Source of the DNA: Stutzerimonas stutzeri
GTDB lineage: Bacteria > Pseudomonadota > Gammaproteobacteria > Pseudomonadales > Pseudomonadaceae
Direction of reading: 5' to 3'
NCBI RefSeq assembly: GCF_018138085.1
Contig: NZ_CP073105.1
Coordinates: forward strand, 1,798,001-1,862,000
DNA length: 64,000 nucleotides
The notes beneath the pieces are model-generated. The model was not told the DNA's origin, made no database searches, and was given only the letters and a program-made list of their open reading frames with translations. The translations under genes and the position numbers were made by a program. Positions 33,478 to 48,005 of this stretch are shown here, piece by piece. The first letter of the stretch is position 1. The number at the start of each line of letters is the position of its first letter.

Positions 33478-34376
33478 CAGTAAATTGCCGCGGGTCGCGG
33501 CTCCCACAATCGGTGGCTCGGTACGCGCTGTGGCTTTCTTGTAGGAGCCCCGACCGCGGAGCGAAGCTTTTGCTCCTGAGCGGGCCGCAAGCCCGCATTC
33601 GCCGCGGGTCGCGGCTCCCACACAAGGCGGCTCGGTGCGCGCTGTGGCCTTCTTGTAGGAGCCCCGCCCTCGGGGCGAAGCGTTTGCTTTTGAGCGGGCC
33701 GCAAGCCCGCATTCGCCGCGGGGTCGCGCCTCCTACAAAAGCGGCTCGGTACGCGGTGGCTTTCTTCGTAGGAACCCCGCCCGCGGGCGAAGGTTTGCAT
33801 TTGAGCGGGCCGCAAGCCCGCATTCGTCGCGGGTCGCGGCTCCCACAAAGGCGGCTCGGTGCGCGTTGTGGCGTTGTTTGTAGGAGCCCCGCCCTCGGGG
33901 CGAAGCTTTGCATTTGATCGGGCCGCAAGCCCGCATTCGCCGCGGGTCGCGGCTCCCACAAAAGGTGGCTCGGTGCGCGTTGTGGTGTTGTTTGTAGGAG
34001 CCCCGCCCTCGGGGCGAAGTGTTTGCTTTTGAGCGAGCCGCAAGCCCGCATTCGCCGCGGGTCGCGGCTCCCACAAAAGGTGGCTCGGTACGCGCTGTGG
34101 CGTTCTTGTAGGAGCCCCGCCCTCGGGGCGAAGCTTTTGCTTTTGCGCGGGACGCAAGCCTGCATTCGCCGCGGGTCGCGGCTCCCACAATCGGTGGCTC
34201 GGTACGCGCTGTGGCTTTCTTGTAGGAGCCCCGCCCTCGGGGCGAAGCTTTTGCTTTTGCGCGGGACGCAAGCCTGCATTCGCCGCGGGTCGCGGCTCCC
34301 ACAAAAAGCGGCTCGGTACGCGCTGTGGCGTTGTTTGTAGGAGCCCCGCCCTCGGGGCGAAGCGTTTGCTGTTAAG
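33478..34376. repeat. REP-type tandem array A, eight units of about 114 bases
   Basis: GTAGGAGCC-type (one GTAGGAACC) REP starts occur at 33541, 33654, 33768, 33880, 33994, 34108, 34222 and 34337, a period of 112-115. Each unit has a GTAG-headed palindrome (CCCCGCCCTCGGGGCGAAG), a second hairpin (GCGGGC-CGCAA-GCCCGC) and an opposite-facing element (CGCGGGTCGCGGCTCCCACA). Together they make a BIME-like pair. The array fills the space between the convergent efp and DASS genes. Open frames crossing it are repeat translations, not genes. Confidence 0.95.
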
Positions 34377-34397
34377 CGGTGAGCTCACGTTCGCTCC

Positions 34398-38311: not shown

Positions 38312-38332
38312 GCGACATAATCCCGCTCGGAC

Positions 38333-38845
38333 CCGCTTTTGTGGGAGCCGCGCCCCGCGGCGAAAACAAACTCCCTGCCGGCGCAGAGCAAAAGATTCGC
38401 CCCGAGGTCGGGCCTCCCCAAAAAAGCAAAAGCTCACACCCATAGCCTGCACGGACCCGCTTTTGTGGGAGCCGCGCCCCCGCGGCGAAAGCAAACTCCC
38501 TGCCAGCGCAGAGCCAAAAGCTTCACTCCGAGGTCGGGCCTTCCATAAAGAAAACAAAAGCTCACAGCCATAGCCTGTACGGACCCGCCTCTTGTGGGAG
38601 CCGCGCCCCCGCGGCGAAAACAAAACTTCCTGCCAGCGCAGAGCCAAAAGCTACGCCCCGAGGTTGGGCCTCCCACAAAAACAAAAGCTCACAGCCATGG
38701 CCTGCACGGACCCGCTTCTCCCCCGCACGGACCCGCTTCTTGTGGGAGCCGCGCCCCCGCGGCGAAAGCAAACTCCCTGCCGGCGCAGAGCGAAAAGCTT
38801 CGCCCCGAGGTCGGGCCTCCCACAAAACAAAAGCTCACACCCATA
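38333..38845. repeat. REP-type tandem array B, four units of about 125-150 bases
   Basis: GTGGGAGCCGCGCC starts occur at 38341, 38465, 38594 and 38742. Each unit contains the palindrome GCCGCGCCCCCGCGGCGAA (one C shorter in the first copy), a middle part CTCCCTGCCGGCGCAGAGC, and an inverted partner CGAGGTCGGGCCTCCCACA. The last spacing is longer because CGCACGGACCCGCTTCT is doubled. The array lies between the spermidine-synthase-like gene and the deaD leader. Confidence 0.93.
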
Positions 38846-40861: not shown

Positions 40862-41332
40862 AAGTGCCATTCGCCCCGAGGTCGGGGCTCCCACAAACCA
40901 AATCCCGTCCAGGCCATGTAGGAGCCGCGCCCCCGCGGCGAATGCAGCTCGCAGGGCTGCCAAGCAAACCGAGCCCCACCTTCGCAAGCCCGACCCAACG
41001 GTTCCCGTGGGAGCCGCGCCCCCGCGGCGAATGCAGACCGCAGGGCTGCCAAGCAACCCCAGCCCCATCTTCGCAAGCCCCGACCCATCGGTTTCTGTGG
41101 GGGCCGCGCCCCCGCGGCGAATGCAGCCCACAGAGCTGCCAAGCAACCCCAGCCCCATCTTCGCAAGCCCCGACCCATCGGTTTCTGTGGGAGCCGCGCC
41201 CCCGCGGCGAATGCAGCCCGCAGGGTTGCCAAGCAAACCGAGCCCCACCTTCGCAAGCCCCGACCCATCGGTTCCCGTGGGAGCCGCGCCCCCGCGGCGA
41301 ATGCAGCCCGCAGGGCTGCCAACAACCTCAAC
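40862..41332. repeat. REP-type tandem array C, five units of 90 bases
   Basis: GTAGG/GTGGG starts occur at 40918, 41007, 41097, 41187 and 41277, an almost exact 90-base period. Each unit has the palindrome GCCGCGCCCCCGCGGCGAA, a second hairpin (GCAGCCC-GCA-GGGCTGC or a variant) and a conserved spacer (CATCTTCGCAAGCCCCGACCC or close). One opposite-facing element (TTCGCCCCGAGGTCGGGGC) opens the array at about 40870. It abuts the 3' end of the RAYT gene. Confidence 0.95.
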
Positions 41333-41773
41333 CTACAACCAAGCCGCATCCCAGTGCGGATAGTCGCCAATCCGTTCCACCAGCCCGGCCCTCAGCGGGT
41401 TCGCGACGATGTATCGCGCTACCGACTTCAGGTCCTCCTCACGCCGTAGCGCTCGGTCATGAAATCCGGCCTGCCAGATTGAACGCCCGATATGCCTCGC
41501 CGAGATCGATTTGACTCGCCCAACGAGCTGGGGCAGCGTGCCTTGCTCCAGCTGGACCAGCCAGTGAAGATGGTCAGGCATTACAACGAAAGCCCATGTC
41601 TTACTCGTGCCCCTTGCTTCGTCGGATTGCATGGTGCGAATCAGCGCTCGTGCCGCGGCCATGTCACGAAAAGCAGGCCGTCGATCCTGAGCGACAGTCG
41701 TGACCAGATAGACCTGACCCAGGACGGAGCAGCGGCCCTTACGAAGCCGGCTCGATGCGAAATAAGCGTCCAT
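41333..41773 (-). CDS. REP-associated tyrosine transposase (RAYT, Y1/HUH family)
   Basis: The 146-residue single-strand nuclease/transposase is of the IS200-like REP-associated type. The start ATG 41773 has AAGGAGAAAGAGC before it. The HUH metal site is the HLH in VVMPDHLHWLVQL (about residues 63-75). The catalytic tyrosine is likely in VARYIVANPLRAG (about 118-130), where RAYTs keep the Y-x-x-x-N-P-x-x-A-G pattern. VYLVTTVAQDRRPAF near residue 21 is also typical. RAYTs cut and join at REP palindromes; the flanking arrays C and D are its probable substrates. The full length suggests it is functional. Confidence 0.92.
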   Translation of the reverse strand: MDAYFASSRLRKGRCSVLGQVYLVTTVAQDRRPAFRDMAAARALIRTMQSDEARGTSKTWAFVVMPDHLHWLVQLEQGTLPQLVGRVKSISARHIGRSIWQAGFHDRALRREEDLKSVARYIVANPLRAGLVERIGDYPHWDAAWL

Positions 41774-41871
41774 GCTCTTTCTCCTTGTTCGTTTACCCCG
41801 CAGCTTAACGTTGATGCGTGTCGACGTTAGCGATCCGTTGCCCACCATCCGGCATCGGTCAATCGTGAAAA

Positions 41872-42195
41872 CGCTTCGCCCCGAGGTCGGGGCTCCCACA
41901 AACCAAACTCCGCCCCGTCCGCCTTGTGGGAGCCGCGACCCCGCGGCGAATGCAGCCCGCAGGGTTGCCCTGGTGGTTTCAGATCCACCTCCGCAAGCCC
42001 CGACCCACCGGTCTTTGTGGGAGCCGCGACCCTGCGGCGAATGCAGCTCGGCTGCCCTGTTGGTAGCAGACCCCGCCTTGGCAAGGCCCCAACCCGACCG
42101 GTATTTGAAGGAACCGCGCCCTCGCGGCGGATGCAGGCCACAGGCCTGCCGCTTCAAAAAGCTTCGGCCCGAGGTCGGGCCTCCCACAAAACAGC
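41872..42195. repeat. REP-type tandem array D, three units of about 91 bases
   Basis: Unit starts at 41926, 42017 and about 42108 give a period of 91, matching array C on the other side of the RAYT gene. It opens, like C, with the opposite-facing element CTTCGCCCCGAGGTCGGGGC (about 41875) and closes with another near 42163. The third unit is more diverged (GAAGGAACCGCGCCCTCGCGGCG). Confidence 0.92.
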
Positions 42196-44059: not shown

Positions 44060-44655
44060 ATCCCTGGGGCGCTCTTCTGTCGGGAGTGCGCCCCTGCGGC
44101 GAATGCAGGCCGCAGGCCTGCCGCTCCAAAAACTCGCCCCAACGCGGACCTCCTAAACATTCCAGCAGCCCGCACGAACCCGCCTTTATTGTAGGAGCCG
44201 CGCCCCCGCGGCGAACGCAGCCCGCAGGCCTGCCGCTCCTGAAACTCGCCCCAACGCGGGCCTCCCGCCCATGCCAACAGCCACACGACCCCGTTTTTTT
44301 GTAGGAGCCGCGCCCCCGCGGCGAACGCAGCCCGCAGGCCTGCCGCTCCAAAAACTCGCCCCAACGCGGGCCTCCCGCACATACCACAGCGCGCACGGCC
44401 CCGCCTTTTTTGTAGGAGCCGCGCCCCCGCGGCGAATGCAGGCCGCAGGCCTGCCGCTCCTAAAACTTCGCCCCTATGCGGGCTTCCCGCACATACCAAC
44501 AGCCCGCACGAACCCGCTTTCTGTAGGAGGCGCGCCCCCGCGGCGAATGCAGGCCGCAGGCCTGCCGCTCCTAAAACTTCGCTCCAATGCGGGCCTCCCG
44601 CACATACCAATAGCCCGCACGAACCCGCTTTCTGTAGGAGGCGCGCCCCACGCCG
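44060..44655. repeat. REP-type tandem array E, six units of about 111 bases
   Basis: Unit starts at 44079, 44191, 44301, 44412, 44523 and 44633 give a period of 110-112. Each carries GTAGGAGCCGCGCCCCCGCG (first and last copies diverged), a second hairpin (GCAGGCC-GCA-GGCCTGC or GCAGCCC-GCA-GGCCTGC), TGCCGCTCC, and an inverted stretch CGCCCCAACGCGGGCCTCCC. The array fills most of the gap between the two wzz genes. Confidence 0.94.
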
Positions 44656-46286: not shown

Positions 46287-48005
46287 ATGAGCTATCCACA
46301 AATAGAACATCACGGCGCTAAGGACGGCGTTACCGGCTCCTGTCACCAATTGCGCATGAATGCGACCACCAGCCTGCTGATCGACTGCGGGCTGTTCCAG
46401 GGCAACGACGCATCGATCCCTGGCAAACCGGGCTCGGATCGGCTAGCCATCGAATTCCCGCTGGATACCATCAAAGCGCTGGTCGTTACCCACGTGCACA
46501 TCGATCACGTTGGGCGCATTCCCTACCTGCTCGCAGCGGGCTTCGAAGGTCCCATTCTCTGCAGTGAACCCTCAGCGAAACTGCTGCCGATCGTGCTTGA
46601 GGATGCGTTTAAGCTCAGCTTTAGCCGTGATCACGCGCAGATCGAAAAATATATCCGCCTCGTCGAGCAACGGATCATCGCTTTGCCGTACCAGCACTGG
46701 TTCACCCTGGACGATAGCAACGGTCTGCTGGCCCGCATACGGCTACAGCGCGCCGGGCACATACTCGGCTCGGCCTATGTCGAAATCGACCTCAACTACC
46801 CGCAAACAGGGGAGGGCAAGCGCGTCGTCTTTTCCGGCGACCTCGGCGCACCGCATGCCCCCTTCCTGATGCCGCCCGAATCCCCAGAGCGCGCCGACAT
46901 CCTGGTGCTCGAAAGCACCTACGGCGACCGCCTCCACGAAGACCGCAGCACCCGCCGTCAGCGACTCGAAGCCGTTATCGAACAGGCCCTGGAAGACCAG
47001 GGCACCGTGCTGATCCCCGCGTTCAGCATCGGCCGCACCCAGGAACTGCTCTACGAGCTCGAAGACATCATTCAGAGCAAGCAAGGACCGGCCGCGGACC
47101 TGTTCCCTCTCCCCCCCGAGGAGAGGGCTAGGGTGAGGGGAGATGCCTGCGACGAAGCCCCGGCCACCTCCGATATGCCCCTTCTCCCCGCTGGGGAGAG
47201 GGCTGGGGTGAGGGGAGCGGCTAGCCCCGAAGCTCCGTCTGACTCCGACCAACCCCCTCTCCCCTCAGGGGAGAGGGTTGGGGTTAGGGGAAAGGCCCGC
47301 GACGTAGCCCTGGCCAGCTCCGATATGCCCCCTCTCCCCTCAGGGGAGAGGGCTGGGGTGAGGGGAACAGAGCCCAGCGCTAAGGCCAAGCCTCACACGG
47401 AACCCAACTGGCCCGAGCTCCCGATCATCCTCGATTCGCCGCTCGCGAGCCGCTTCACCGAGGCCTATCGAAACCTCAAGCCGTATTGGAACCAAGAGGC
47501 CCGCGAACGCATCCAATCCGGGCGCCGCCCGTTGGCCTTCGAACAACTGGTCACCATCGACAGCCACAGCGACCACCAAAGCGTCGTCAACCACCTTGCT
47601 CAGACTGCACGCCCAGCCATCGTCATTGCCGGTGGCGGCATGTGCAGCGGCGGTCGCATCGTCAATTACCTCAAAGCCATGCTCGGGGATAGACGGCATA
47701 ACGTTTTGTTTGTCGGCTACCAGGCCAAGGGCACGCCCGGGTATGAGATCCAAACCTACGGACCCAAGGGCGGCTATGTGTATCTGGACGGCGAACGCAT
47801 TGACGTGCGCGCAGGGATTGCCAGCATAGGTGGCTACTCGGCGCATGCGGATCAGAAGGGGTTGGTAGAATTTGTGACCGGGATGCAGGACTGGCCGGGG
47901 GAGATTCGGGTGGTGCATGGGGAGCAAACGTCCAAGCAGGCGTTAGGTGCTCAGTTGCGCAAGCAATACGACCGATTGAATCGTCCGCTAGAAATGGTGG
48001 GGTGA
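46287..48005 (+). CDS. Beta-CASP metallo-hydrolase (RNA-processing type) with repeat insertion
   Basis: The 572-residue protein starts at MSYPQIEHHGAKDGVTGSC behind AAAGGA. Metallo-beta-lactamase motifs: VTHVHIDHVGR (about 67-77), FSGDLGAPHAP, LESTYGDRLH. Beta-CASP motifs: LIPAFSIGRTQELLYELE, GGGMCSGGRIVNYL and GGYSAHADQKGL near the end. Such proteins act as RNA exo- or endonucleases. About 90 residues (roughly 272-362) are repeat-derived: four PLPSGERAGVRG-like units sit between IIQSKQGP and NWPELPIILDSPLASRF, which are contiguous or nearly so in relatives as I know the family. The frame stays open throughout. Confidence 0.88.
   Translation: MSYPQIEHHGAKDGVTGSCHQLRMNATTSLLIDCGLFQGNDASIPGKPGSDRLAIEFPLDTIKALVVTHVHIDHVGRIPYLLAAGFEGPILCSEPSAKLLPIVLEDAFKLSFSRDHAQIEKYIRLVEQRIIALPYQHWFTLDDSNGLLARIRLQRAGHILGSAYVEIDLNYPQTGEGKRVVFSGDLGAPHAPFLMPPESPERADILVLESTYGDRLHEDRSTRRQRLEAVIEQALEDQGTVLIPAFSIGRTQELLYELEDIIQSKQGPAADLFPLPPEERARVRGDACDEAPATSDMPLLPAGERAGVRGAASPEAPSDSDQPPLPSGERVGVRGKARDVALASSDMPPLPSGERAGVRGTEPSAKAKPHTEPNWPELPIILDSPLASRFTEAYRNLKPYWNQEARERIQSGRRPLAFEQLVTIDSHSDHQSVVNHLAQTARPAIVIAGGGMCSGGRIVNYLKAMLGDRRHNVLFVGYQAKGTPGYEIQTYGPKGGYVYLDGERIDVRAGIASIGGYSAHADQKGLVEFVTGMQDWPGEIRVVHGEQTSKQALGAQLRKQYDRLNRPLEMVG
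47105..47366. repeat. Four in-frame palindromic repeats inside the beta-CASP gene
   Basis: Near-identical elements start at about 47105, 47178, 47254 and 47328. Each has CCCTCTCCCC, a short turn, GGGGAGAGGG, then CTGGGGTGAGGGGA. The period is about 75 bases, exactly 25 codons, so the reading frame is kept. The spacers after copies 1 and 3 are also alike (GACGAAGCCC / GACGTAGCCC, then CTCCGATATG). Translation gives PLPSGERAGVRG-type blocks. This is a different repeat family from arrays A-E. Confidence 0.95.

What the first reader, a model, noticed from the sequence alone, without database searches (positions are those of the whole stretch)
47099..47370. Palindromic repeat array invades and extends a beta-CASP nuclease gene in frame
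Four copies of a GGGGAGAGGG-type palindrome, exactly 25 codons apart, lie inside an otherwise intact metallo-beta-lactamase/beta-CASP gene. They add about 90 residues of PLPSGERAGVRG-like sequence between IIQSKQGP and NWPELPII without breaking the frame. Motifs before and after the insert are complete. Intergenic repeats that become protein sequence are rare and recall Rickettsia palindromic elements. The period being a multiple of three, and the similar spacers, suggest expansion by whole units under selection to keep the frame.
Basis: partly seen in the sequence, partly recalled or inferred. Interest (0 to 1): 0.8.

Follow-up and report, generated by a model that had tools for sequence, protein, structure and literature searches.

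The report
Mobile DNA repeats lengthen nuclease loop
In Stutzerimonas-like bacteria, short palindromic DNA repeats that normally sit between genes have settled inside one loop of a gene for a probable RNA-cutting enzyme, where they are read as protein and change the enzyme's length in repeat-sized steps.

Summary
Four palindromes 75 nt apart (47105-47366) lie in frame in an intact 572-aa MBL/beta-CASP/RMMBL gene (46287-48005). The element matches the 36-nt G/C-rich intrastrand triplex motif (TM; Holder 2015), reported as always intergenic in E. coli MG1655. This genome has 35 palindrome matches against 0 for the reversed control. The insert fills a short loop between a beta-CASP helix and strand and is predicted disordered, while the core is modelled well. 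Of 40 group-A orthologues in the genus, 22 have TM in this loop, 12 an unrelated GTAG REP, 3 both, 9 neither; 38 of 40 linkers are multiples of three. Two pairs of near-identical proteins differ by exactly 25 and 50 residues. Paralogues B and C show no repeats there. Three genomes of another genus have TM in the same loop, and lhr helicase carries its own in-frame arrays. Best reading: repeat insertion, then gain and loss of units, filtered by selection on frame in a tolerant loop. In-frame REPs are a known phenomenon (Di Nocera 2013); the triplex element, the repeatedly occupied loop and the unit steps are the new parts.

The parts
46287..48005 (+). MBL-fold/beta-CASP/RMMBL (CPSF73/TTHA0252-like) gene, probable ribonuclease, 572 aa
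   Evidence: Pfam hits over cut-off on both sides of the insert; best PDB relative TTHA0252 by sequence and by fold
47064..47417 (+). Linker (354 nt, 118 codons) between the helix ending ELLYELE and the strand LPIILDSPLA
   Evidence: tblastn anchors; AlphaFold2 model: helix 248-266, strand 380-383, pLDDT under 50 over residues 269-277 and 279-370
47105..47140 (+). TM copy 1 (36 nt)
   Evidence: 9 of 10 triads
47180..47215 (+). TM copy 2
   Evidence: 9 of 10 triads
47255..47290 (+). TM copy 3
   Evidence: 9 of 10 triads
47330..47365 (+). TM copy 4
   Evidence: 10 of 10 triads
41333..41776 (-). REP-associated tyrosine transposase (RAYT; start codon chosen by me), between GTAG/GTGG-type REP arrays; candidate mover of GTAG REPs, not shown to move TM
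   Evidence: NF047646, 143 bits against a cut-off of 80; PF01797

Best explanation
The insert is a short array of TM elements, G/C-rich palindromes with a third tract that could fold into an intrastrand DNA triplex. One landed in a loop of the beta-CASP domain. The 75-nt unit (36-nt TM plus 39-nt spacer) was then duplicated and deleted by slippage or recombination between repeats, giving 1, 2, 3 or 4 units (48, 69-74, 98-99 or 119-124 linker residues in the nearest 20 proteins). Selection on the protein core removes most frame breaks, while the loop tolerates very different disordered sequences and lengths. Shown by computation: identity of the element, in-frame state, variation among orthologues, unit classes, purifying selection on the core, predicted disorder of the insert, absence of the repeats from paralogues B and C. 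Inferred: surface exposure of the loop (not computed), slippage or recombination and any part of the triplex in it, expression of the long protein, near-neutrality of the insert, and how TM arrived.
For: Element: matches the TM sequences listed in PMC4666352; triad geometry kept. Recurrence: of 40 group-A loci 22 have TM, 12 a GTAG REP, 3 both, 9 neither. Frame: 38 of 40 linkers are multiples of 3; the two others (G012, G032) contain a repeat and stops. Unit steps: P0002 and P0010, identical cores, differ by 25 aa; P0009 and P0019, 99.8% core identity, by 50 aa. Controls: 17 clade-B loci keep 75-102 nt without repeats; 120 hits of paralogue C are 464-491 aa with 0 of 120 repeat peptides, against 488-618 aa and 117 of 120 in the 120 listed group-A hits, the window protein included. 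Selection: core pN/pS 0.08-0.31, linker 0.14-1.26 in 12 pairs that I chose. Structure: core mostly over 70 pLDDT, insert under 50; top fold match TTHA0252. Another genus (g12): 3 of 4 loci looked at have TM in the loop, 0 of 200 codon shuffles as good in each. Generality: 30 of 30 lhr linkers taken are multiples of 3, 27-768 nt.
Against: No expression or biochemical data. All 27 TM copies in the 40 group-A linkers are on the plus strand and 26 start in one codon phase; all 14 GTAG copies are on the plus strand and 13 share a phase, although 4 of 6 TM frames and 5 of 6 GTAG frames of the consensus are open. The g12 copies also share strand and starting phase. So few insertions with much inheritance, loss or exchange, or selection on frame, are as possible as many independent insertions; parsimony gives 9 changes for each family on a partly unresolved tree. 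Many length differences between close proteins are not multiples of 25. The linker has fewer synonymous changes than the core in several pairs, unexplained. Loop content and genome copy number are not significantly linked in phylogenetically independent pairs. At least seven genus genomes have a broken group-A gene (G006, G008, G011, G012, G030, G032, G048), so it is dispensable in places.
Confidence: 0.78

Rival explanations
1. The insert is selected at the protein level: a disordered linker whose length or sequence tunes RNA binding, partner binding or domain motion.
For: Two unrelated repeat families occupy the same loop in one genus and TM in a second; one strand and nearly one phase is used throughout; the linker is rich in P, A, S and G.
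Against: Linker pN/pS is above the core's in 11 of 12 pairs and equal in one; 9 of 40 group-A loci have neither repeat, paralogues none; net charge is slightly acidic (14 K+R, 19 D+E), which does not suggest RNA binding.
Confidence: 0.15
2. The repeats are kept for their nucleic-acid structure: hairpins or triplexes in the gene or mRNA control its expression, perhaps as a target of the nuclease itself.
For: Triads intact in the four copies; RNA of the insert folds better than shuffles, z -3.3, 0 of 200 as good; low synonymous divergence of the linker in some pairs.
Against: Any recent TM copy folds well, so the z-score is expected; orthologues with decayed copies (G034, G050, G046) or none exist.
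Confidence: 0.08
3. Assembly artefact or mis-called frame.
For: Tandem repeats are prone to assembly errors; some of the compared proteins come from metagenomes.
Against: Similar architecture in many assemblies and species; the window lies on a 4.98-Mb contig; frame open with Pfam domains on both sides.
Confidence: 0.02
4. A dedicated in-gene mobile element akin to Rickettsia palindromic elements.
For: Same outcome: in-frame palindromes in proteins.
Against: The sequence is TM, and 11 of 13 clusters in this genome lie outside recognisable genes.
Confidence: 0.02

Closest known systems
G/C-rich intrastrand triplex motif TM / TMECO (Holder et al. 2015, PMC4666352)
   Same: Same three-tract sequence CCCTC[TG]CCCC-nnn-GGGGAGAGGG-nnn-GGGTGAGGGG (Table 1 seen); TM sites are reported as rearranged among strains (abstract)
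   Different: Reported as always intergenic in E. coli MG1655 (section 18); here in frame inside genes and in tandem
Intragenic GTAG and CGTC REPs (Di Nocera et al. 2013, PMC3733652)
   Same: REPs inside genes, many in nucleic-acid enzymes; singles, dimers and groups, in two species clusters encoding 43-82 residues; one same-site case (Xanthomonas recB); flexible linkers or loops proposed as tolerant (passages)
   Different: Here one loop holds two unrelated families across a genus, with unit classes among close relatives; TM shows neither tag
Rickettsia palindromic elements
   Same: Palindromes found in frame in likely functional proteins (as described in PMC3733652)
   Different: Other bacteria; the repeat here matches TM; RPE sequences themselves were not compared
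REPINs and RAYTs
   Same: GTAG-type REP arrays and a RAYT lie nearby; inverted TM pairs occur in lhr linkers
   Different: No TM site lies next to either Y1_Tnp gene of this genome

Membership tests
Intrastrand triplex motif TM | Pyrimidine tract, complementary purine tract and antiparallel purine third tract with 3-nt loops | tested here: met
   9, 9, 9 and 10 of 10 triads in the four copies; compare PMC4666352 Table 1
Intrastrand triplex motif TM | Forms a triplex in vitro or in vivo | not testable with these tools
   Studied by others for E. coli TM (abstract); not for these copies
Intrastrand triplex motif TM | Many copies per genome, above chance | tested here: met
   35 palindrome sites against 0 in the control; nearly all rows carry the third tract on one strand
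Intrastrand triplex motif TM | Intergenic location, as in E. coli MG1655 | tested here: not met
   In frame in this gene and in lhr; 11 of 13 clusters fit it
GTAG-tagged REP mobilised by RAYT | GTAG tag at one end of the palindrome | tested here: not met
   No GTAG next to the four TM copies (sequence); the second family found in relatives begins with GTAG
GTAG-tagged REP mobilised by RAYT | Flanks a RAYT gene | tested here: not met
   Two Y1_Tnp genes; nearest full TM sites are kilobases away; in L130 only one palindrome-like site with 4 mismatches and one with 5
Rickettsia palindromic element | RPE consensus sequence | not tested
   No RPE consensus was compared
CPSF73/TTHA0252-type beta-CASP ribonuclease | MBL, Beta-Casp and RMMBL domains with conserved metal-site motifs | tested here: met
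   Pfam; H69, H71, D73, H74, H158, D185 and H520 invariant over 63 A and C sequences (their role is recalled); fold match
CPSF73/TTHA0252-type beta-CASP ribonuclease | RNA cleavage activity | not testable with these tools
   No assay

The most novel reading that the evidence does not exclude
A triplex-forming DNA motif has been recruited into a gene as a built-in length-switching device: its instability adds or removes 25-residue units of a disordered loop and so tunes a ribonuclease, and lhr helicase uses the same trick.
Probability: 0.12. Interest if true: 0.85.

Novelty: new variant of a known kind. Interest (0 to 1): 0.57.

Why it matters
It shows how non-coding mobile repeats become protein sequence, with a natural series of 0 to 4 units among relatives that lets the cost or benefit be measured. 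It offers an in-gene readout of the instability attributed to triplex motifs, and it explains PLPSGERAGVRG-like and VGASSLAN-like stretches inside real enzymes.

Tried and rejected
A first AlphaFold2 job on 49 close orthologues gave a poor model (mean pLDDT 40.4); it was discarded and replaced by one on 63 A and C sequences (74.8). Long ORFs over other arrays (L133, L144, L149, L182, L194) had no Pfam match over its cut-off and were not counted as genes; in L098 and L200 the only domains lie after the repeat, and they were not counted either. The eight further stretches with tandem TM (L204-L211), among them the period-108 array of G047, gave no ORF with 90 residues on both sides. The Rickettsia idea was dropped once the sequence matched TM. 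A scan of named genomes gave only 2 loci.

The lhr short/long comparison (42 nt in G005, G021, G010, G054; 264 nt in G047, G036, G033) cannot be polarised: TGAGGG occurs at both ends, so deletion is as possible as insertion, and that tree is weak (2 of 27 inner branches starred).

Corrected on re-checking: the TM copy of the broken G012 linker starts in the usual phase and loses the frame within or after the repeat; it is not an insertion in another frame. The g12 copies share strand and starting phase with the genus and change frame after the hairpin, so independent origin there is not shown; confidence was lowered from 0.80 to 0.78 for this.

Dropped before counts: group-A loci without a measurable linker (G044 at a contig end, G048 with a deletion), one A-like second copy (L061, G005) left out of the 40, fragments L078 and L079, and 2 of 120 proteins whose linker was not parsed.

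Full report
What is there. The four palindromes at 47105, 47180, 47255 and 47330 are real, 75 nt apart and in one codon phase. They lie in a 572-aa gene with Lactamase_B, Beta-Casp and RMMBL matches. The genus name Stutzerimonas is inferred from names given to hits; the window's genome itself is unnamed. The closest solved relative is TTHA0252 (phmmer; Foldseek, top row its S378Q mutant entry, E 4.8e-34). In the alignment to TTHA0252 query residues 258 and 375 fall next to chain residues 235 and 242, so the insert stands where that protein has about six residues. An AlphaFold2 model from 63 A and C sequences (mean pLDDT 74.8, pTM 0.75) puts it between helix 248-266 and strand 380-383, with pLDDT under 50 for residues 269-277 and 279-370 (and 40-50). 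Surface exposure was not computed.

What the element is. Each unit is CCCTCTCCCC-nnn-GGGGAGAGGG-nnn-GGGTGAGGGG or close to it. The third tract can pair antiparallel with the purine tract; 9, 9, 9 and 10 of 10 triads are intact. It matches the G/C-rich triplex motif that Holder et al. [quoted passage not shown] They write that in E. coli MG1655 it is always intergenic. In this genome 35 palindrome sites are found at up to 2 mismatches, 0 with the reversed control.

Intergenic or genic. The 35 sites form 13 clusters. Two are inside genes with domains on both sides: this gene and lhr. The other 11 were judged by ORFs and Pfam only, without a gene caller; one of them (L098) lies in an open frame upstream of a META domain and was taken as upstream of the gene. 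In four relatives with 142 matches, 30 were given loci. Of those 30, 9 lie inside genes, 6 gene copies in all: lhr in G047, G038 and G036, beta-CASP in G036 (these by position), a VgrG-like gene in G036 and a urea-carboxylase-like gene in G001, with Pfam domains on both sides. The listed loci are the best matches, so this is not a rate. A second, GTGG/GTAG-type REP has 66 matches in the own genome: 44 lie in the 19 stretches fetched, where no ORF over a repeat had a domain over cut-off; 21 in the window and 1 elsewhere were not tested that way.

Orthologues. Fifty-eight loci with measurable linkers come from the genus search of 56 genomes; in eight genomes the best match is only at E about 1e-43 to 1e-44, the level of paralogue C. 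The tree holds a clade B of 17 loci (support 100). Of 40 group-A loci, 22 have TM (up to 8 of 29 mismatches), 12 a GTAG REP (up to 5 of 22), 3 both, 9 neither (the same numbers with a second TM pattern). The mildest TM cases, G034 and G012, have 8 and 6 mismatches, with 0 of 100 codon shuffles as good. All 27 TM copies are on the plus strand, 26 of them in one starting phase (the other is the decayed copy of G050); all 14 GTAG copies are on the plus strand, 13 in one phase, the other in the broken G032. Two linkers are not multiples of three and contain stops: G012 (113 nt) and G032 (100 nt). Some proteins read an added TM-like stretch in another frame (PPAGEGRGEG in P0031, P0068, P0114). Group-A linkers with neither repeat run from 57 to 192 nt.

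Unit steps. Among the 20 best hits linker lengths group at 48, 69-74, 98-99 and 119-124 residues with 1, 2, 3 and 4 repeat peptides (one of two peptide patterns counts 2 instead of 3 in P0012). P0002 and P0010 have identical cores and differ by 25 residues; P0009 and P0019 have 99.8% core identity and differ by 50. Of 7 pairs at 99% core identity or more, 4 differ in linker length (25, 50, 42, 20). At 97% or more, 112 of 127 pairs differ, mostly not by multiples of 25, since other lineages carry mixed repeats. Paralogue C, 120 listed hits, is 464-491 aa with 0 of 120 such peptides; the 120 listed group-A hits are 488-618 aa with a peptide in 117 and both families in 59. Six paralogue C loci read in full have a short loop.

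Selection. In 12 group-A pairs that I chose (they share genomes, and one has no repeat) core pN/pS is 0.08-0.31 and linker 0.14-1.26. The B linker, without repeats, is relaxed too: 0.26-0.90 in 5 pairs. So the core is maintained while the loop is loose with or without repeats. In several pairs the linker has fewer synonymous changes than the core, which I cannot explain. At least seven genus genomes have a broken group-A gene (G006, G008, G011, G012, G030, G032, G048).

Loop content and genome content. Genomes with TM in the loop have more TM palindromes (median 23 against 3, p 0.006), likewise for the GTAG REP (54.5 against 6, p 0.008). The counts include the loop copies, TM counts of 1-2 are at the level of the control, and independent-pair tests are not significant (median p 0.375 for both). 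G046 and G050 have no TM palindrome at 2 mismatches yet keep a decayed TM in the loop (3 and 5 of 29 mismatches), which I read as fossils.

Beyond the genus. Of 22 loci from other genera of the family, 3 have TM in the loop, all of genus g12 (G176, G184, G169), with 4, 3 and 3 mismatches and 0 of 200 shuffles as good; the fourth g12 locus (G134) has none (84 of 200). They share strand and starting phase with the genus and change frame after the hairpin. Of the other 19 loci, G134 among them, one linker is broken (G215) and none has either repeat. Loci were partly chosen for long open frames, so this is no rate.

lhr. The gene at G000:C1:1227651-1232702 has a 768-nt linker with four direct TM copies at 183-nt steps plus one inverted, between WH_Lhr and DEAD_assoc domains. 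In the 30 best-scoring of 56 genomes the linker runs from 27 to 768 nt, all multiples of three; 9 have TM, 14 a GTAG REP, 2 both, 9 neither.

Mechanism. How TM arrived is unexplained. The genome has two Y1_Tnp genes; the one in the window, 4.5 kb from the gene, is a RAYT (NF047646) between GTAG/GTGG arrays; the other has its own REP on both sides and was not scanned against NCBIfam. No full TM site adjoins either. Gain and loss of units by slippage or recombination is inferred from the 25- and 50-residue differences; any role of the triplex is inferred from Holder et al.

What is known. Di Nocera et al. 2013 (PMC3733652, abstract and passages seen) describe in-frame REPs in many genes, often DNA repair genes, with one same-site case, so the kind is known. 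Judged by title and abstract start, searches on intragenic REP, REPIN and RAYT, Rickettsia and palindromic repeats, the repeat's letters, triplex motif and coding, beta-CASP with REP and Stutzerimonas REP listed no paper on this loop; only open-licence PMC papers are held.

Noticed in passing
window 41333-41776 (-), arrays 40917-41327 and 41929-42150: A REP-associated tyrosine transposase sits between two arrays of GTAG/GTGG-type REPs; further arrays at 33487-34379, 38328-38716 and 44088-44649.
   Followed up: partly
L092:1252-6306 (own genome C1:1227651-1232702): lhr helicase carries about 240 residues of TM-derived in-frame insert with 183-nt units; its linker varies in repeat content and length among the 30 genomes looked at.
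   Followed up: yes
L198 (G001), L191 (G036): In-frame TM pairs between domains of a urea-carboxylase-like and a VgrG-like protein.
   Followed up: partly
L130 (own genome C1:98058-101369): A second Y1_Tnp gene with its own REP family (GTAGGAGCGGTCTCGACCGCGA-like) on both sides.
   Followed up: no
L078 (G035), L079 (G011): An extra detached stretch similar to the C-terminal part of the beta-CASP gene lies a few kilobases from the main gene.
   Followed up: no
beta-CASP linkers, pairs G024-G041 and G020-G033: Synonymous divergence in the linker is far below that of the core (0.06 against 0.40; 0.05 against 0.35).
   Followed up: no
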